This document shows, in pieces, positions 33,709 through 41,130 of a DNA stretch of 57,600 nucleotides. Both the position numbers and the translations under genes were made by a program. Source of the DNA: Chloroflexota bacterium (lineage in GTDB: Bacteria > Chloroflexota > Anaerolineae > Promineifilales > Promineifilaceae). The stretch lies in the NCBI GenBank assembly GCA_018004935.1, contig JAGNBF010000022.1, positions 1 to 57,600 of the forward strand, written 5' to 3'. Every line of letters starts with the position of its first letter. Position 1 is the stretch's first letter. The notes beneath the pieces were generated by a model that worked only from the letters and a program-made list of their open reading frames with translations, did not search any database and was not told where the DNA came from.

Positions 33709-36528
33709 ATGAGTAACCCCTTTCAACCAACGCCGCAACAACAAGGCGTTATCGCTCACAACAGTGGTCCAGCGTTGGTGTTTGCCGTGGCCGGGGCAGG
33801 CAAAACCACGGCCATGGTGCATCGCATTGAACGGCTGGTGCGGGAAGGCATATTCCCGGCGGAGCGGATTCTGGCGACCTCGTTTGCGCGGGCCAATGTG
33901 AAGGATTTGCGCGAGGCGATGAAGAAATGGCCCCACTGCGGCCGCGTCCATCTCCGCACCCTACACTCCCTCGGCTACCAGATCATCCGGCAGGCGTTAG
34001 ACCAGGGCCTCGTGCGCGGCCTGCGCCTGGGTGGCGACGATGACGAAGAAGAAAGTGGTGGTCAATCGGTTCTCAGCAAAACCCTGACCGAAGCCCGGCG
34101 GCGCAACGTGCCGTTCAAAAAAGAGTTAGACGGGTTGGATTGGGTGGATTTCCTGGCCTACGTGGGGTATTGCAAGGGGAATCTGCAATATGCCCACCTG
34201 GAGAGAGCGAATCTGCCCGCGGCCGCGCACAAACTCGCTACCCAGGCCGAACCACCGCAAAAACTGGGCTGGTATCTCGACCTGTACCGCCTCTACGAAG
34301 AGATACGCCTCCAGCAAGGAGCTATCACCTTCGACGACATGCTCCTCACCGCCTGGGAGCTTTTGCTCCGTTTGCCCCCCCTCGCCAGTAAAGTGCGCGA
34401 AATGTACCAATGTGTCCTGGTAGACGAGTTCCAGGACATCAACCTGGTGCAATCGGAACTGCTCGACATCCTCACCCCGCACCGCAACTACATGGCCATT
34501 GGCGACGATGATCAGACCATTTACGAATGGCGCGGGGCGGATCCCCGTTTCATTCTGGAATTCGCCCAGCGGTACAAGGCCCAAACTTACCTCATCAACG
34601 ACAATTTCCGTTGTCCGGCCGCGCCGCTAGTGCTGGCGAATCAGGTTATCCAGTTCAACCAGAAACGGCATCCCAAACAGCTCAGCCTGACCAAAGGGTT
34701 TCAGGGCGAGACAATGATCCACCGGGTCAAAGAGGTGGCGACGATGGCCGGGGAGATTGTGCGGCGCATCGCGGCCGCGCACCAGCAGGGTCTCAGCTAC
34801 AACGAAATGGCTGTCCTCGTCCGCATCAACGCCCAGACCCCGTACATCGAGCAAGCCCTCATCAACCAGGGCATCCCCTACCGGGTACAACAGCCCTTCT
34901 ACGACCGCCCCGAAATCCGCACCCTGGTCGAGTACGCCCGGCTGGCCCTCATCGAGCAGTTGCTCCTGGCAGGCAAAAATCCGTTCGGCAAACAAGATAA
35001 CCGGGACAAATTCAGCACCGCCTGGAATAGCATCTGCAACCGGCCCAAGCGGTACATTTCGGTACAGGTGCGCGAGGCGATTGCGGCCGCGGTGCTCCAA
35101 TCGGGTCGTGCGCTCAGCGCCGTGCTCCACGAGTTTGCCGAGGAGACCGACGACGAGTGGCAAGCACTCCCTCTGCAAATCCTGGCCGAGGATCTGGATT
35201 GGTTGCGGCAAAACATGAGCCAGGACGCGGCCGCGACCCTGAAAAAGTTTGATGAGCGCATCGGCTACCAGGGGTTTTTGCGGGACACCAGCGGTTTTGC
35301 CCAAACCGGTGAAGGTCGGGCGGCCAATGTGCGGGCCTTTATTGATTATGCGAAGGAAAAGGGGGATGTGCTGGCGTTTATGGGGCAGGTCAAACAATTG
35401 GCCGATGAACGGGTGGGGCAAGAGGCGTACCAGACCGGGCAGGCCGTCTCCCTGGCGACTATCCACCGGAGCAAGGGGTTGGAGTGGCCGCTGGTGTTTG
35501 TACCCCAGGTCAATGAGGCGATTTATCCGTTTAACGGCGCGGCCGCGTCCAACGAAGAGGAAGAACGCCGCCTGCTCTACGTGGCCCTCACCCGCACCAA
35601 ACGAGATTTACACCTGTTCCAACTGGAAAAAGAGCCGCTCTCCCCGTTTCTACGCCAGGCCCAAAGCGACATTACCCTGCAACAAGTTCAGGCCCTCCAC
35701 CACGCTCTCAACCATCCCACCCCAGGCTGGCAAGCCACGGAAGCGTTAACTGTCCTGAAGCAGACGCAGGTGTACAAACTGGAACGGTATTTCCAAAGCT
35801 GGTGGCGGGAAGAACAGGCCCGGAAAGAGGCGATTGTGGCGGAGGTGGAGCGGTTTTTCGCGGCCGCGACTCAGCAGAAGGCTCTGGGGCAGTTGGGGTT
35901 GAGCGAGGAACAGACGGTGGTATGGCGGGAACTCGTGCAAAACTCAGTGAACAGTGAACAGTCAACAGTGAGAAGTAACCAGTTGTTAGTGACCAGTAAC
36001 CAGTCTTCAGTCTCTCAGTCTCTTAATCTCTCAGTCTCTCAATCTCTTTCCTACCCCGGTCTGGCCGAAATGCTGGCGAAACCACAACCGGAAGCCAAAC
36101 CGGCCAAAAAGAAGAAGGCTGAGCCGGAGAAGGAGCCAGAGATCATTAAAGCCGGGATGTGGGTTCAGTGTGATGCCGGTTGGGGGGAGATTGAGGCCAT
36201 TTTGGATGTGGTGCGGCGACCCGTGGCCCAGTTTGAACGGGGGAATACGTTTGTGGTGCTGAAGGTGATGTTGCGGCCGCGGCACGACGCCACCCCCATC
36301 GAAATTGACATCTCCGCTAAACGAATTAGTTTCCCGGCGGGCATGACACTGTACAGTTGTGGGCAATGCGGCCGCTTTACTACCCCCACCCCCGAACTCA
36401 TCCTCAAAGCCCACAACCGCTCGGCCCACGATGGTGTGGGGGCCAGCTACAAACCCGAAGCCACCGCCCAGCGCAAACTCACCACCCTCAAATTCAAGCC
36501 CACCCCACCCCCCTCTGACATCACCTGA
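33709..36528 (+). CDS. UvrD/Rep-family superfamily 1 DNA helicase with C-terminal zinc-finger region
   Basis: 939 residues. ATP-dependent 3'-5' helicase core: Q motif FQPTPQQQGVI, Walker A AVAGAGKTTAMVHRI near residues 27-41, Walker B LVDEFQDINLVQ near 238, motif III AIGDDDQTIYEWRGADP near 264, motif V TIHRSKGLEWPLVFVPQ near 585, motif VI EEERRLLYVALTRTKRDLHLF near 614. After the core, residues about 745-781 are translated from a heptanucleotide repeat also found in an unrelated gene. The C-terminal region (about 805-939) contains a lysine-rich linker, a strand-rich part and CGQC...HNRSAH near 882-905, a likely C2H2 zinc finger. The tail is not part of standard UvrD, PcrA or Rep. It follows the acyl-CoA dehydrogenase by 35 bp but functional coupling is unlikely. 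Confidence 0.9.
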   Translation: MSNPFQPTPQQQGVIAHNSGPALVFAVAGAGKTTAMVHRIERLVREGIFPAERILATSFARANVKDLREAMKKWPHCGRVHLRTLHSLGYQIIRQALDQGLVRGLRLGGDDDEEESGGQSVLSKTLTEARRRNVPFKKELDGLDWVDFLAYVGYCKGNLQYAHLERANLPAAAHKLATQAEPPQKLGWYLDLYRLYEEIRLQQGAITFDDMLLTAWELLLRLPPLASKVREMYQCVLVDEFQDINLVQSELLDILTPHRNYMAIGDDDQTIYEWRGADPRFILEFAQRYKAQTYLINDNFRCPAAPLVLANQVIQFNQKRHPKQLSLTKGFQGETMIHRVKEVATMAGEIVRRIAAAHQQGLSYNEMAVLVRINAQTPYIEQALINQGIPYRVQQPFYDRPEIRTLVEYARLALIEQLLLAGKNPFGKQDNRDKFSTAWNSICNRPKRYISVQVREAIAAAVLQSGRALSAVLHEFAEETDDEWQALPLQILAEDLDWLRQNMSQDAAATLKKFDERIGYQGFLRDTSGFAQTGEGRAANVRAFIDYAKEKGDVLAFMGQVKQLADERVGQEAYQTGQAVSLATIHRSKGLEWPLVFVPQVNEAIYPFNGAAASNEEEERRLLYVALTRTKRDLHLFQLEKEPLSPFLRQAQSDITLQQVQALHHALNHPTPGWQATEALTVLKQTQVYKLERYFQSWWREEQARKEAIVAEVERFFAAATQQKALGQLGLSEEQTVVWRELVQNSVNSEQSTVRSNQLLVTSNQSSVSQSLNLSVSQSLSYPGLAEMLAKPQPEAKPAKKKKAEPEKEPEIIKAGMWVQCDAGWGEIEAILDVVRRPVAQFERGNTFVVLKVMLRPRHDATPIEIDISAKRISFPAGMTLYSCGQCGRFTTPTPELILKAHNRSAHDGVGASYKPEATAQRKLTTLKFKPTPPPSDIT
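35941..36050 (+). repeat. In-frame degenerate heptanucleotide repeat inside the helicase gene
   Basis: About 110 bp of TNANCAG-type 7-mers (TGAACAG, TCAACAG, TAACCAG, TGACCAG) running into TCAGTCTC repeats. Seven bases repeat in register every 21, giving a seven-residue peptide periodicity (NSEQSTV, RSNQLLV, TSNQSSV). The same repeat lies in the FAD oxidoreductase gene at 39968-40145, in the same orientation relative to the gene. Confidence 0.9.
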
Positions 36529-36592
36529 TTCAGGCCCTTACGAGTCAACTTCTTGTACAGTTAGGATCGAAGATTAAATAACCGACGAAACT

Positions 36593-36735
36593 ACTGTGGC
36601 CGGTCTTCTGACCGCGCCACCCAGGTTATTTTTGGACGACTACTAAGTAATCGTTCGTTTTTAACTTAGCGGTTTGCTGTGGCCGGTCTCCTGACCGAGC
36701 CACCTATCTTATTTCCGAACGATTACTAAGCACCA
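36593..36735. repeat. Two tandem copies of the GGTCTCCTGACC-family repeat
   Basis: Two GTGGCCGGTCT(C/T)CTGACCG units at about 36597 and 36680, each followed by a TTATTT...CGA(C/T)TACTAAG arm. The pair fills the gap after the helicase gene; the remaining bases to 36780 hold a remnant end of the GGCATGGTTC element. Confidence 0.75.
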
Positions 36736-36758
36736 TTTGCCAACTTTTGAACCACGCC
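36728..36758. repeat. Solo end of the GGCATGGTTC element family
   Basis: AAGCACCATTTGCCAACTTT-TGAACCACGCC, one end of the 119-bp element with the remainder absent. Confidence 0.65.
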
Positions 36759-36780
36759 TCATGGAGAACCCCTGTGACTG

Positions 36781-37149
36781 TTATGCTTTTAACCAGGCCA
36801 GGGCTGACTCTTGATCAAAAAAGAGCGAGACGGAGTAGCCGTTATTGCGGCATACGATCTCGTAAAATTGCAGATTTTCTTTTAACCAGGCAGGCACAAC
36901 AACTGCCATTTTCAGAGCGTGCGATAGGCCTAGTTCGCCGTACCGTTTGGGCAGGTTATAGATGTCCATTGTCTGGAGCAAATCAGCCTCAATATCGCGG
37001 TGGTCCAACAGGCAACGCAAACAGCCTTCTTGTTTGAGAATTGCCGCCCCTTCATGCCGCATTTGTGTGGCAGACTCTATCTCCAGGACACCGGAAGTCT
37101 TAACATAAAGAATACCATCGGCCTTATCATAGGTCATTTGCCACTGCAT
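36781..37149 (-). CDS. Small SpoIIAA/STAS-like domain protein
   Basis: 122 residues. The start MQWQMTYDKADGILYVKTSGVL, ILKQEGCLRCLLDHRDIEAD and the final SVSLFFDQESALAWL have the strand-helix pattern of SpoIIAA-like or STAS-like proteins, often annotated in signalling contexts. No phosphorylatable Ser is certain. A GAGGT Shine-Dalgarno lies 5-6 bases before the ATG. It is a single gene between the helicase and the frameshifted secreted protein, both separated by repeats. No GCGGCCGC copy occurs from 36376 to 38211. Confidence 0.7.
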   Translation of the reverse strand: MQWQMTYDKADGILYVKTSGVLEIESATQMRHEGAAILKQEGCLRCLLDHRDIEADLLQTMDIYNLPKRYGELGLSHALKMAVVVPAWLKENLQFYEIVCRNNGYSVSLFFDQESALAWLKA

Positions 37150-37284
37150 TGTTACCTCTTACCTGGCATGCCATCATCTGATGATGGTGCAAAAAGTATC
37201 GGTTAATTTTACCCCATTGTTGGGATAACCAACCGTCCAGGGGTTCTGGCTCAGGGTGGAGGGGCAGGGAGAAACTGGAGACTG

Positions 37285-37319
37285 GTTATACTGCCAAAGG
37301 GCATAATCTGACATTTTCC
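37285..37319. repeat. GGGCATAATCTGA-family repeat, truncated copy
   Basis: GTTATACTGCCAAAGGGCAT-AATCTGACATTTTCC, identical to the start of the copy at 1543; the tail is missing. Confidence 0.7.
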
Positions 37320-37342
37320 CAGAGAGTGGCGGTTTAGGTCAT

Positions 37343-38336
37343 TCAATCATCGCCAGCTGTATCATCGGTACGATGACGGCGAGCCAGAATCAACAGACCA
37401 AAGATGGTCAGGACCCACAAAACACCCAGGCCACCATATTGATTGGTTGAGCCGCTAAATGAGTTGTACATCTGTAGGTGGGGGCGTGGAGGAAGCGGTT
37501 GGCTCCACGGTGGCCGTAGCCGTGGCAGTGGGTAACGCTGTGGAAGTGGCCGTAGCCGTGGGCAACGCTGTCGAGGTGGCCGTGGCGGTGGCGGTGGGTA
37601 ACGCTGTGGAAGTAGCCGTTGCCGTGGCGGTCGGTGTGGGTGTGCCACCACTCGTATCACAATAACGGATCGCCACATCGTCCACGTACCAACCCATACG
37701 ATTCACAACGGTGGTGGCATGGAGCAAAAAGTCTATCGTTACACTGGCATTGCCCGCATAAGCTGAAAGGTCAATGGGTTGATAAATATAGTTGGCCGTT
37801 GGTGTGGAATTGGGTGTACGCCATACTTGAGTACCATTCACACGGGCAATAGCAAAATCAAAGGTCTCAAAAACTTCATACCAATGATACCAGCTCAGTT
37901 CGATGGGTGCGGAAAGGGTGCTGAGATCAAAGGTTCGGCTCAGAATGCCGTCGGTATTGGCATTGGGGTAACAACCGTTTAAGTTGGTTCCCCAAACATT
38001 TAGCCCGGAGAAGGCTCCCGTAGGTTCTGGCCTGGGAGCGGTGTCACAGATCTCATAGATACCTGGCACGACCGGGCCATACTCCCAAAAGTTGGCTGGT
38101 CCAGTTGCTGTCCAACCCCCATTGTTGGTCTCAAAATCACTGAAATAAAACTCGGTGGGCACACCAACCGGGCAGGTTAACCCCCCATATTCTTGAGCAG
38201 GTGGGGACGACGCGGCCGCGTCATCCCCACCATTGGCCTCAGCTTCACCACTCCCTCCCTGGGCCGATACCAGAGAAACCGTGAGTAAAACCATTAACCA
38301 TAGAAGGCCAGCCAGCAATACATTTTTTTGTTTCAT
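37343..38336 (-). pseudogene. Secreted protein with C-terminal membrane-sorting tail, interrupted by a +1 frameshift
   Basis: The main frame, 38336-37455 (293 residues), has a signal peptide (MKQKNVLLAGLLWLMVLLTV, cleavage near SAQG), a beta-sandwich-like domain (FSDFETNNGGWTATGP...GWYVDDVAIRYC) resembling carbohydrate-binding or jelly-roll modules, and a Pro-Thr-Ala-Thr linker. It ends PTDVQLI-stop. In the +1 frame, straight after that stop, comes SGSTNQYGGLGVLWVLTIFG followed by basic residues (to 37343), a typical C-terminal membrane anchor. The intact secreted protein at 56136 has PTDVSL followed by its anchor, so the frames belong together. Removing one T from ATTTAG (37457-37460 region) restores a single 330-residue frame. 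This could be a mutation, a sequencing error or programmed +1 shifting. Confidence 0.75.
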
Positions 38337-38345
38337 CTTAATCCT

Positions 38346-38455
38346 CCTACGAAAATGTAGGGCGATTTTGTAAATCGCCCAGTGGGCGATTTACAAAATC
38401 GTCCTACAAATTTTCATTCCTCTTGGTGCGCTCAAAGCCCATGGGGAACTCCTGA
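38346..38455. repeat. Composite repeat: GTAGGGCGATTTTGTAAATC palindrome with CCCATGGGGAACTCC arm
   Basis: A long inverted repeat GTAGGGCGATTTTGTAAATC / GATTTACAAAATCGTCCTAC is followed by ATTTTCATTCCTCTTGGTGC and CCCATGGGGAACTCCT. The arm occurs inverted at 15108-15160. The same palindrome is the core of the GGCATGGTTC elements. Confidence 0.7.
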
Positions 38456-38522
38456 AGAATAACGTTTGTCACCAACAATCTGCCGAAGGTTTATGCCAAT
38501 AATTGCCCAAAGGTATAAACCT

Positions 38523-38592
38523 GCTGGCCTTGTGCCTGCCCCATGTGGGGTAAGCACAAGGGTTGCCCGTACCCCGCGAAATCCCCAAGACC
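38523..38592. repeat. GGTTCTTTGG-type element, truncated copy
   Basis: Core CTGGCCTTGTGCCTGCCCC...AAGGGTTGCCCGTACCCC and the right end GAAATCCCCAAGACC are present; the left end is lost. Confidence 0.6.
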
Positions 38593-38602
38593 CACAGTTG
38601 GG

Positions 38603-38805
38603 CGGTTTAATCAGAGGACCGGCCACAGCAAATCGCCAGGCTAATTGCAGACGAGGGCATGGTTCAGGTCAGCTTTACAAATTTGTAGGACGATTTGGTA
38701 AATCGTCTCGTGGGCGATTTACCAAATCGCCCTACAAAGTGTTAAGCACAGCTTGCGGACTTTTGAACCATGCCCAGACGAGTAATAATCGTCCGTCATG
38801 ATGAG
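38603..38805. repeat. GGTCTCCTGACC-family repeat interrupted by a 119-bp element
   Basis: AGAGGACCGGCCACAGCAAA and TCGCCAGGCTAATTGCAGAC-GAG lie to the left (to 38655) and CAGACGAGTAATAATCGTCC to the right (from 38775). Removing the element and one duplication restores the AAATCGCTAAGTTAA..GGACGATTACTAA arm of the family. Confidence 0.65.
38656..38774. mobile_element. 119-bp MITE-like element, exact 8-bp target duplication
   Basis: Terminal inverted repeats GGCATGGTTCA / TGAACCATGCC, perfect over 11 bp. Flanked by CAGACGAG on both sides (38648-38655 and 38775-38782). The core is the double palindrome GTAGGACGATTTGGTAAATC...GATTTACCAAATCGCCCTAC. A 119-bp near-identical inverse copy is at 42539-42657 and a 95-bp copy at 44242-44336. 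Confidence 0.9.
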
Positions 38806-39010
38806 ATCAATTTTCACGAGGGCAATGGTAAACGTCCAATCACTCTGGGGAAGTTGAACTTTTAACTCTGCTAAAAAACCCATTACCAGAGAAAAGTTCA
38901 AATTCTTGACTGAACGGTTAGAGGCAACATTGAGGATGATGCACGATAGAGAGTTGAAGAAGGCATTTGACGAGAATAATGCCTATCAACATTATACCAA
39001 CGTATTGTAG
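38770..39010 (+). pseudogene. 3' remnant of an unidentified gene with a one-base frameshift
   Basis: Frame 1 from 38770 reads RRVIIVRHDEINFHEGNGKR and ends PITLGKLNF-stop at 38865. Frame 2 then continues NSAKKPITREKFKFLTERLE, ATLRMMHDRELKKAFDENNA, YQHYTNVL and stops at 39010. Deleting one T from the TTTT at 38860-38863 joins them into one protein-like sequence with strongly coding character. The 5' end is cut off by the 119-bp element; its terminal ATG gives a spurious start. I do not recognise the family. Confidence 0.55.
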
Positions 39011-39357
39011 TGGGCCAAACGGTTACTGACGAGATCCGCAATTCTCATTTTGAGAGGTAAACAGGTACTCGTTCCACCCTCTGCGTGGAATGCTCCCTAC
39101 GACACTCTACATCGCGTAGGACGCAGATCGTCCCAGATGGTATTCCCTCGCAGAGCGTGGGAATAAGTTCGGACACCTGTATTAATACAGTTATTTAATC
39201 TTCGATCCTAAGTGAGCGTCTAAAAATAACTTGGGTGGCTCGGTCAGGAGACCGGCCACAGCAAATCGGGAAGTTATTCTTGGACAGTTACTAAGCTGTA
39301 AAAGATTATGTGCCCTGGTGCCTCTCTGTGCCCTTTTTGGGTTGAGGCTTGTCTGGG
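39011..39357. other. Intergenic stretch with GGTCTCCTGACC-family repeat
   Basis: 39040-39180 is a segment with inverted CTGCGTGGAATGC..GGTATTCC..CGCAGAGCGTGGGAAT blocks, the look of another dispersed repeat. 39211-39296 is a complete GGTCTCCTGACC-family copy with about 22-bp imperfect inverted ends (AGTGAGCGTCTAAAAATAAC against AGTAACTGTCCAAGAATAAC). No gene. Confidence 0.6.
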
Positions 39358-41040
39358 TTAGGAATTGCTGTGACGAGCCAGGCGACGGTAGGCTTTGCCC
39401 CATTGGCGGGACAACCAACCAGCCAGGGGTTCGGGTTCCGGGTGGGGAAGCAGGGGGAACGGTTGGAGGGCGTGAGAAGAGAGGATGGCGTTCGCGGCCG
39501 CGATGCCCGTCACTACCGCCCTCTCCAGATACATGGCCGGAGCCGGGTGGTACACCCAATCACCACAGGCAAACATCCCGGCCCACGGTGTTACCGTTTC
39601 CAGATGTTGTCCTGGTTCGCCCACACTAAACAGGGTATGGGTGGCCTCGTTTCGTTGTAGTTTAATTTTGAGGTTGTACCCACGTAACTCCGGGAAAGCC
39701 CGGTGCAAATCGAGTAACACCCGTGCCAACAAGAGCGCATCTGGTTGGGCCAAAACTTCGGGTGGGCCATAAATATGAACTTCGACGGCACTGCCTCCCG
39801 TTTCCCGCGACCACTCACGAAAACCATCTTGCAACCGATCCAACCAGAAAAAGTTGTCCATAATAAAATCGCCGCTGAAAATCCCCGCCTCACTCACTCC
39901 TTCCGGCTGACGATCAAACCAGGCGCGTATGATGGCGGTGGGGACGCCGGTGGGGAAGTGGAGAGGGGGGAGTACTGAGTGCTGAGTACTGAGGGCTGAG
40001 GGCTGAGGGAAAGGAGACTGAGAGACTGAGAGACTAGAGACTGGAGACTGATAACTGGTTACTGGTAACTGGTCACTGATAACTGTTGACTGTTCACTGT
40101 TGACTGAGTTCCGCTGAGTTCCTACGAGTTCCCACAAGTTCCCCTCCAGCAGTTTTCGCGCCGCCGGTGAGGAAACTGCCAGCACCACCTGGTGCGTTTC
40201 CAATGTTTGCCGACGGCCGTCTTCATCAACCGTCACCCACCAGCCAGCCCCATCCGGCATGGGCATTAGCTTGACCACCTGCGCCCCTTGCCAGATTTCT
40301 GCCCCTGCTTGCCGCACCGTCGCCGCCAGGGGTTCAATGATGGCCGTGCCAGCGCTGGCGGGCAGGTAATCAAAGGCCCAGGCGTCGCGGCGCATAACGG
40401 TGTAGAAGCGGAGAAAGGCGATAAATCCGGCGGCGGGTACGTCTTCGGGGTGGGCGGCCAGGGCATTGCGGGCTAACCCGGCGAACAGGCCACGCAACGT
40501 GGGCGACCAACCTTTGGTGAAATCGGCCAGGGAGAGGTGAGCCAGGGCTTTTTGTTCGGCCAGGGGGTCGAGGGCCATGGCGGAGAAGAGGCCACCCAAC
40601 ACGCGGAACATGGAGGCGATGTCGCGCAGGTTGATCATGGCGAGGAACCGCGGCCGCGCCAAGAGCGACATGTAGTGAAAGGGAGCGGGCCACCAACTGG
40701 AGCGAATCGCCCGACCGATGTTGGCTTTGCGTACCCGCCTTCCCTGCCCAAAAATCCAGGTTTCATCCTGGGCAGGCACATAGGCCGGAGCAATCCCCCA
40801 CCGGGAAAGCATCCCTCTCAGGTTGACGTAGGGAGACCAAAGGCCATGAACACCATGTTCACCGGGGAAAAACCAGGTGCGGCCGCGGTGTTCCAACTCT
40901 ACTTCTGGTTCATCGCGCAACCGGCCCCCTAGCCAGACGGGATCGGCTTCAATGACCAGCGGCCGCAGGCCCCGCTCCGCCAGATGCACTGCACACGTCA
41001 ACCCCGATATCCCTCCACCAATGATAATGACCTGCTCCAT
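39358..41040 (-). CDS. FAD-dependent oxidoreductase (phytoene-desaturase / amine-oxidase superfamily)
   Basis: 560 residues. The N-terminal dinucleotide-binding motif VIIIGGGISGLTCAVHLAERG (residues 4-24) is followed by the second FAD motif LGGRLRDE, both typical of flavin amine oxidases, phytoene desaturases and hydroxysqualene dehydroxylase-like enzymes. The C-terminus has the FAD-closing motif GMFACGDWVYHPAPAMYLERAVVTG. The substrate is unclear; no carotenoid or hopanoid genes are close. Residues about 303-358 are a low-complexity insert encoded by the heptanucleotide repeat also present in the helicase gene. A GTG at 41046 opens the frame, but the ATG at 41040, with GAGGTG just upstream, is preferred. 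Confidence 0.82.
   Translation of the reverse strand: MEQVIIIGGGISGLTCAVHLAERGLRPLVIEADPVWLGGRLRDEPEVELEHRGRTWFFPGEHGVHGLWSPYVNLRGMLSRWGIAPAYVPAQDETWIFGQGRRVRKANIGRAIRSSWWPAPFHYMSLLARPRFLAMINLRDIASMFRVLGGLFSAMALDPLAEQKALAHLSLADFTKGWSPTLRGLFAGLARNALAAHPEDVPAAGFIAFLRFYTVMRRDAWAFDYLPASAGTAIIEPLAATVRQAGAEIWQGAQVVKLMPMPDGAGWWVTVDEDGRRQTLETHQVVLAVSSPAARKLLEGNLWELVGTQRNSVNSEQSTVISDQLPVTSYQSPVSSLSVSQSPFPQPSALSTQHSVLPPLHFPTGVPTAIIRAWFDRQPEGVSEAGIFSGDFIMDNFFWLDRLQDGFREWSRETGGSAVEVHIYGPPEVLAQPDALLLARVLLDLHRAFPELRGYNLKIKLQRNEATHTLFSVGEPGQHLETVTPWAGMFACGDWVYHPAPAMYLERAVVTGIAAANAILSSHALQPFPLLPHPEPEPLAGWLSRQWGKAYRRLARHSNS
39968..40145 (-). repeat. In-frame degenerate heptanucleotide repeat inside the FAD oxidoreductase gene
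   Basis: Minus-strand TCAACAG, TGAACAG, TTATCAG, TGACCAG, TTACCAG 7-mers continue into TCAGTCTC and CCTCAG repeats. The peptide is NSVNSEQSTVISDQLPVTSY and onward. It is preceded by GGAACTCGTAGGAACTCAG, like GGAACTCGTGCAAAACTCAG at the helicase insertion, so the repeat unit or its target includes GGAACTCGT. Confidence 0.9.
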
Positions 41041-41130
41041 ACCCACCTCTGAATCATTGCTTTGTCTAGTGCCCGCCTCTATAATGCAACAAACGGCAAC
41101 AAATGGCGAATAGAAGCTACAGGCGTAACC

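What the first reader, a model, noticed from the sequence alone, without database searches (positions are those of the whole stretch)
35941..40145. The same heptanucleotide repeat is translated in-frame inside two unrelated proteins
A degenerate TNANCAG 7-mer array, continuing into CAGTCTC repeats, occurs at 35941-36050 in the helicase gene and at 39968-40145 (minus strand) in the FAD oxidoreductase gene, always sense relative to the gene and preserving the frame. Because 7 and 3 are coprime, any three units encode one seven-residue peptide block in a fixed pattern (NSEQSTV, TSNQSSV, VISDQLPV), which tolerates insertion without stop codons in this frame. Both sites are preceded by GGAACTCGT. 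The pattern suggests a mobile or expanding repeat with a protein-coding-compatible strand.
Basis: partly seen in the sequence, partly recalled or inferred. Interest (0 to 1): 0.8.

Follow-up and report, generated by a model that had tools for sequence, protein, structure and literature searches.

The report
Heptamer repeat arrays inside core enzymes
Short seven-base DNA repeats, scattered at hundreds of places in this Chloroflexota genome, have repeatedly entered the loops of otherwise normal enzymes and are read in-frame as extra floppy segments, so the bacterium appears to tolerate simple-repeat DNA inside some of its most conserved proteins.

Summary
Degenerate CAGTNAN heptamer arrays running into CAGTCTC arrays lie in-frame and sense inside an SF1 (UvrD-like) helicase (35945-36049) and an HpnE/phytoene-desaturase-like FAD enzyme (39970-40145). 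Orthologues lack both, so they are insertions. They belong to a genome-wide family: about 490 array loci by extrapolation from an unselected 0.69-Mb sample. In 2.48 Mb I found 31 frame-preserved gene-internal loci, including inserts in MenD, HisC, HisF and GltB; TrmD carries another. Alignments to solved structures show clean loop insertions (TrmD 53 aa, HisF 40, HisC about 105). Gene-internal arrays are 28 sense, 2 antisense; non-genic, non-hairpin arrays are 9:8. The commonest units (CAGTGAA, CAGTAAA) have stops in every sense frame and none in reverse; gene copies are open because every third unit carries C or T. Arms follow a fixed purine-then-pyrimidine order (56 of 64), which argues for spread as composite units. 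Related genera carry different heptamers in the same MenD loop. Heptanucleotide repeats, some inside ORFs, are known from cyanobacteria and Beggiatoaceae, so this is a new variant of a known kind: unusually dense, composite, and inside core enzymes.

The parts
33709..36528 (+). UvrD/Rep-like SF1 DNA helicase gene (939 aa) that carries the first array in its C-terminal region, beyond the helicase core
   Evidence: Pfam UvrD-helicase and UvrD_C, residues 8-636; NCBIfam PcrA/Rep-like but below cut-off; orthologues in relatives
35928..35936 (+). GGAACTCGT, one copy of the 5' module (GGAACTCNNN) that precedes arrays at several loci
35945..36014 (+). CAGTNAN heptamer array (A arm), about 10 units, translated NSEQSTVRSNQLLVTSNQSSV
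36001..36049 (+). CAGTCTC / TCAGTCTC 7- and 8-mer array (B arm), translated SVSQSLNLSVSQSLS
39358..41046 (-). FAD-dependent amine oxidase/phytoene desaturase/HpnE-like oxidoreductase gene (562 aa) interrupted by the second array at about residues 303-358
   Evidence: Pfam Amino_oxidase; TIGR03467 HpnE 96.5 bits, below its cut-off of 283; homologue matches break at 302 and resume at 358-362
40107..40145 (-). 5' module: about four GGAACT-containing 10-bp units upstream of the array
   Evidence: TRF period-10 array at 40116-40143
40037..40106 (-). CAGTNAN heptamer array (A arm), 10 units, translated NSEQSTVISDQLPVTSYQSPV
40014..40046 (-). CAGTCTC-type array (B arm), translated SSLSVSQS
39970..40009 (-). 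CTCAGNA/CTCAGCC heptamer array (D arm), translated PSALSTQHSVL

Best explanation
The two arrays belong to a family of dispersed composite heptanucleotide tandem arrays, like cyanobacterial STRRs, at several hundred loci in this Chloroflexota genome. A typical gene-internal element reads, in gene sense, (GGAACTCNNN)0-4 - (CAGTNAN)n - (CAGTCTC/TCAGTCTC)n and/or (CACCATT)n. Between genes the arrays are often true inverted repeats that fold as RNA hairpins. Shown by sequence: gene-internal arrays are insertions in loop or linker positions of otherwise intact enzymes, stop-free in the gene's frame, almost always sense, and not hairpin-forming. Inferred: pieces of arrays are copied to new sites by recombination or template switching and grow by replication slippage, in either orientation. 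Purifying selection on the protein then leaves only those that read as polar Ser/Gln/Asn/Thr-rich linkers. The peptide probably has no function beyond being tolerated.
For: Clean insertions: window proteins against orthologues; TrmD residues 75 to 129 against chain 99 to 105; HisF 140 to 181 against 133 to 137; HisC 201 to 308 against 200 to 204; MenD. Genome-wide family: 453 pattern matches, control 19; 94 arrays in 2.48 Mb, control 14. Orientation: flank-based test 25 sense to 1 antisense open in-frame; locus-based 28:2 inside genes against 9:8 outside without hairpins, Fisher p = 0.002. Phase constraint: at the unit position that makes a TNA codon, 34 of 34 are C or T, while other phases and non-genic arrays are mostly G or A. 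Composite order: tail 3' of the CAGTNAN arm in 38, 5' in none; purine-to-pyrimidine arm order 56 of 64. RNA folding: intergenic hairpins median z about -6, gene-internal composites +1.05. Peptides: CAGT-sense repeats mostly polar, the reverse complements of the commonest units hydrophobic with Cys. Other genera: open-frame sense arrays in MenD, a PKS-like synthase, an ABC transporter and a xanthine-dehydrogenase-like protein; different heptamer peptides in one MenD loop of several genera.
Against: No second strain was available, so neither length variation nor movement was seen. Translation is inferred from frame and stop conservation; there is no proteomics. Composite elements are mildly more stop-free in sense (about 6 of 36 against 3 of 36 frames after removing loci that are really genic, from the list), so stops explain part of the strand bias for them. 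A 21-bp step of growth is visible in ValS and in MenD of a relative but is not general. Loop position is inferred from alignments, not from a model: the AlphaFold run was poor (pLDDT 41).
Confidence: 0.72

Rival explanations
1. A mobile element of the Rickettsia palindromic element (RPE) or MITE kind: a transposase or other integrase in trans inserts the composite arrays, with a preference or requirement for sense orientation in genes.
For: Fixed order of distinct modules at many loci and hairpin forms between genes; RPEs are known to insert in-frame in unrelated genes (PMC10969869).
Against: Copies share unit types and order but not a fixed sequence, length or end. Non-genic orientation is balanced (9:8). 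Target-site duplications were not tested. Two RVT-type genes are the only reverse transcriptases found, with no link to the arrays shown.
Confidence: 0.15
2. Each array grew on the spot by replication slippage from a chance seed, with no dispersal between loci.
For: Heptamers are the favoured slippage unit in many bacteria (discussed in PMC4679880). A perfect 21-bp periodicity in MenD of G034 shows local growth.
Against: Independent seeds would not give the same two to four module types in the same order at dozens of loci, nor the same GGAACTC module at five loci.
Confidence: 0.1
3. Ancestral protein segments that happen to be repetitive.
For: One MenD loop carries heptad-like peptides in several genera, so at some sites the feature may predate the genus.
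Against: Orthologues of both window proteins lack the segment, as do TrmD, HisF and HisC of known structure. Unrelated proteins share the same peptide.
Confidence: 0.02
4. The arrays are removed before the protein acts, as an intron, intein or translational bypass.
For: It would explain inserts inside core enzymes.
Against: There would then be no reason for strict frame, stop avoidance and phase-specific unit choice. No intron or intein features were seen, although none was searched for specifically.
Confidence: 0.02

Closest known systems
Cyanobacterial short tandemly repeated repetitive (STRR) heptanucleotide sequences
   Same: Seven-base tandem arrays dispersed through the genome, commonly intergenic and able to form hairpins (PMC2670836); also reported inside the RNase P RNA gene (Vioque 1997, title cited in PMC2858038). 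From memory, the unit CAACAGT is one of the Calothrix STRRs, close to CAGTNAN.
   Different: Here in Chloroflexota, degenerate composite arrays with a fixed arm order, and dozens in-frame inside conserved enzymes.
TAACTGA (TCAGTTA) heptamer repeats of Beggiatoaceae, cyanobacteria and Bacteroidetes (MacGregor 2015, PMC4679880)
   Same: Nearly the same unit; one strand translates to a repeating heptapeptide (LSVISYQ) in any frame and the other gives stops; 11 ORFs carry the open strand.
   Different: There the in-ORF repeats are few, short and mostly at protein ends or in hypothetical proteins, and orientation is explained by stops. Here they are long, internal to core enzymes, and the commonest unit is open on the opposite strand, so stops alone do not explain the orientation.
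Rickettsia palindromic elements (RPEs)
   Same: Repeats inserted in-frame in many unrelated protein genes, translated, with protein function apparently kept (PMC10969869).
   Different: RPEs are defined palindromes of about 150 bp in named families; these are variable-length arrays of seven- and eight-base units with no fixed ends seen.
Phase-variable simple sequence repeats (contingency loci)
   Same: Slippage-prone short tandem repeats inside genes.
   Different: A single-unit change of 7 bp would frameshift the enzyme, yet arrays are degenerate and sit in housekeeping genes; nothing here indicates switching.

Membership tests
STRR-type heptanucleotide repeats | Tandem arrays of a 7-base unit, many copies dispersed in the genome | tested here: met
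   453 pattern matches against 19 in control; among periods 4-15, period 7 dominates with 91 regions
STRR-type heptanucleotide repeats | Mostly intergenic, often hairpin-forming | tested here: met
   Of 162 loci, 31 pass the strict gene-internal test; inverted-arm loci fold with median z about -6
STRR-type heptanucleotide repeats | Found in heterocyst-forming or other cyanobacteria | tested here: not met
   Nearest named relatives are Chloroflexi MAGs; so STRR-like, not a cyanobacterial STRR
TAACTGA heptamer repeats (MacGregor 2015) | Near-invariant TAACTGA unit, mainly just upstream of start codons | tested here: not met
   The unit is degenerate, CAGTGAA commonest; position relative to start codons was not analysed
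Rickettsia palindromic elements | In-frame insertion in unrelated protein genes | tested here: met
Rickettsia palindromic elements | Defined palindromic element of fixed length and ends | tested here: not met
   Insert lengths 62-312 bp with variable ends; gene-internal composites do not fold
MITE or transposon | Target-site duplication and mobilising transposase | not tested
   No strain pair with empty and filled sites; no transposase link examined

The most novel reading that the evidence does not exclude
This family of Chloroflexota has an active process, possibly hairpin-primed or template-directed synthesis, that makes two-arm heptamer arrays with purine-rich 5' and pyrimidine-rich 3' arms and spreads them through the genome. 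Enzyme loops are routinely colonised, so simple-repeat DNA is a standing source of new disordered protein segments, with different heptamers turning over in the same loops between genera.
Probability: 0.2. Interest if true: 0.85.

Novelty: new variant of a known kind. Interest (0 to 1): 0.6.

Why it matters
Bacterial enzymes are normally thought to tolerate little foreign sequence. Here, within one genome, TrmD, HisC, HisF, MenD, ValS, GltB and others carry 30-105 residue repeat-coded loops, which gives a natural insertion-tolerance experiment and a test of how low-complexity protein segments are born. It also shows that the published stop-codon explanation for repeat orientation is incomplete. 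For annotators, peptides such as NSEQSTV, SSLQSPV and HHSPFTI in unrelated proteins are repeat DNA, not domains.

Tried and rejected
The first orientation count outside genes (15:15) was rejected because inverted pairs balance by construction; I recounted without hairpins (9:8). The idea that gene arrays generally grow in 21-bp steps was not supported. AlphaFold on the FAD enzyme with four sequences gave pLDDT 41 and was not used. A tblastn of the repeat peptide against plasmids found nothing (low-complexity filtering may hide matches). Reverse transcriptase as the source: only two RVT genes, no link shown. A literature search for heptanucleotide tandem repeats in Chloroflexi gave no paper. 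Ancestral domain, intron/intein and assembly artefact were considered and found unlikely: both halves of the same enzyme flank each array in one frame.

Full report
WHAT IS THERE. The window (57.6 kb, 52.5% G+C) lies in contig C125 of a 7.98-Mb draft genome. The nearest named records are Chloroflexi MAGs. The 939-aa ORF at 33709-36528 is a UvrD/Rep-like SF1 helicase; the 562-aa ORF at 39358-41046 (minus) is an FAD amine-oxidase/phytoene-desaturase/HpnE-like enzyme. Each holds an array of CAGTNAN heptamers running into CAGTCTC or TCAGTCTC units; the FAD copy continues into CTCAGNA units.

INSERTIONS, NOT ANCESTRAL SEQUENCE. Matches of FAD homologues break at query residue 302 and resume at 358-362. 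Helicase homologues mostly stop at 722-747, and the one that continues resumes at 782. Multiple alignment shows that the array residues have no counterpart in eight FAD homologues or in the helicase homologues that reach this region.

A GENOME-WIDE FAMILY. The pattern CAGTNANCAGTNANCAGT occurs 453 times in the genome against 19 for its reversed control. Among relatives it is sporadic: 23 of 59 genomes, abundant in a few genera. In 2.48 Mb of this genome I found 94 arrays of four or more units against 14 in reversed sequence, and 162 loci when related unit types are included. An unselected 0.69-Mb subset holds 42 loci, about 490 per genome; four of these are gene-internal, about 47 per genome by the same scaling, a small-number estimate. 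Many of the other contigs were chosen because they had arrays, so densities from the whole sample would be biased upward.

INSIDE CORE ENZYMES. Proteins with in-frame arrays include TrmD, valyl-tRNA synthetase, MoeA, isochorismate synthase, MenD (two sites), MenE, HisC, HisF, glutamate synthase, a DnaE-type polymerase, a molybdopterin oxidoreductase, a PKS-like synthase with eight arrays, and glycosyltransferase-like membrane proteins. I named these partly by reading the sequence; NCBIfam confirmed MenD, HisC and HisF above their cut-offs and an isochorismate-synthase subfamily. Against solved structures the inserts are clean: TrmD residues 75 to 129 replace a five-residue gap, HisF 140 to 181 a three-residue gap, HisC 201 to 308 a three-residue gap. 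MenD is interrupted in two places.

STRAND AND FRAME. Flank-based coding scores, which do not depend on the ORF caller, give 25 sense and 1 antisense arrays read through in-frame. Grouping arrays into loci gives 28 sense, 2 antisense and 1 mixed inside genes. Outside genes, excluding inverted pairs, it is 9 sense and 8 antisense (Fisher p = 0.002). The usual explanation is stop codons. Because 7 and 3 are coprime, a pure array has the same codons in all frames. CAGTGAA, CAGTAAA and CAGTGAG arrays have a stop in every CAGT-sense frame and none in reverse. Non-genic arrays are open in 19 of 153 sense frames and 113 of 153 reverse frames. Plain arrays should therefore survive in genes mainly in antisense, the opposite of what is seen. 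In gene copies the unit whose fifth base falls in a TNA codon has C or T in 34 of 34 cases, whereas other phases and non-genic arrays favour G or A. Composite loci with CAGTCTC or CACCATT tails are mildly more open in sense than in reverse, so stops contribute for them but do not account for 20 sense to 0 antisense composites. The remaining bias fits selection on the peptide: CAGT-sense repeats are mostly polar (QSTVNSQ), while reverse complements of common units are hydrophobic and contain cysteine (FTVHCSL, FTVYCLL). That last step is inference.

ANATOMY. Where a CAGTNAN array has a CAGTCTC or CACCATT tail, the tail is 3' in 38 cases and 5' in none. Over all adjacent arms the order is purine-rich then pyrimidine-rich in 56 of 64. 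A 10-bp-period GGAACTC module precedes the array in the FAD enzyme, helicase, ValS, MenD and a C207 gene. Intergenic inverted-arm loci fold strongly (median z about -6), while gene-internal composites do not (median z +1.05). Shared order across loci argues for copying of composite arrays between sites rather than independent slippage; the copying mechanism was not observed.

OTHER GENERA. Arrays in long open frames also occur in genomes of two other genera of the same family (G021, G034, G013), all sense in the four stretches read: a PKS-like synthase, an ABC transporter, a xanthine-dehydrogenase-like protein and MenD. In one MenD loop G000 carries CAGTCTC-type repeats, G034 a 25-unit CAGTNAN-type array with nearly perfect 21-bp periodicity, and G013, G010 and others different heptad-like peptides. 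Either the loop was colonised repeatedly or an old insert has turned over.

WHAT IS KNOWN. MacGregor 2015 (PMC4679880) described TAACTGA repeats in Beggiatoaceae and cyanobacteria, their translation to LSVISYQ on one strand and stops on the other, and 11 ORFs that contain them. Cyanobacterial STRRs form intergenic hairpins (PMC2670836). Rickettsia palindromic elements insert in-frame in many genes (PMC10969869). A survey of prokaryote satellites reports that transposed non-coding satellites are rare (PMC6749651). My searches of the held library found no description of this phenomenon in Chloroflexota, which is not proof of absence.

LIMITS. One draft genome, no strain comparison, no expression or protein data, simple gene calling; a few loci scored as non-genic by the flank test (TrmD, the C116 gene) are genic by homology, which makes the gene-internal count conservative. 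The structure prediction was too poor to use.

Noticed in passing
whole window; for example 35083, 35227, 35539, 35860, 36273, 36368: The palindromic octamer GCGGCCGC occurs 94 times in the window and 3848 times in 2.48 Mb, about 65 times the base-composition expectation (59), and about ten times the next octamer palindrome. It resembles cyanobacterial HIP1 (GCGATCGC); finding HIP-like octamers together with STRR-like heptamers outside cyanobacteria is curious.
   Followed up: partly
37510-37635: A degenerate Pro/Thr/Ala-coding repeat of about 36 bp (TATATSTALP) near the C terminus of a predicted secreted protein (37455-38336, minus).
   Followed up: no
about 36600, 36680 and 39240: A dispersed intergenic sequence, ctgtggccggtctcctgaccg(a/t)gccacc, seen again at least once elsewhere in the genome.
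   Followed up: no
L236 and L246 (MenD of G034 and G006) and others: A third MenD loop carries peptides of another repeat type (VAGGRWQVAGGKWQVA) in some genera, so more heptamer families probably exist in this clade.
   Followed up: no
G000:C229:11225 onward: A PKS/PfaA-like synthase of about 2950 aa has eight arrays, most in linkers between tandem carrier-like domains.
   Followed up: partly
relatives G023, G003, G032, G021: The reversed control pattern (TGACNANTGACNANTGAC) is itself abundant in some relatives (for example 102 and 111 in G023), which suggests other heptamer families there.
   Followed up: no
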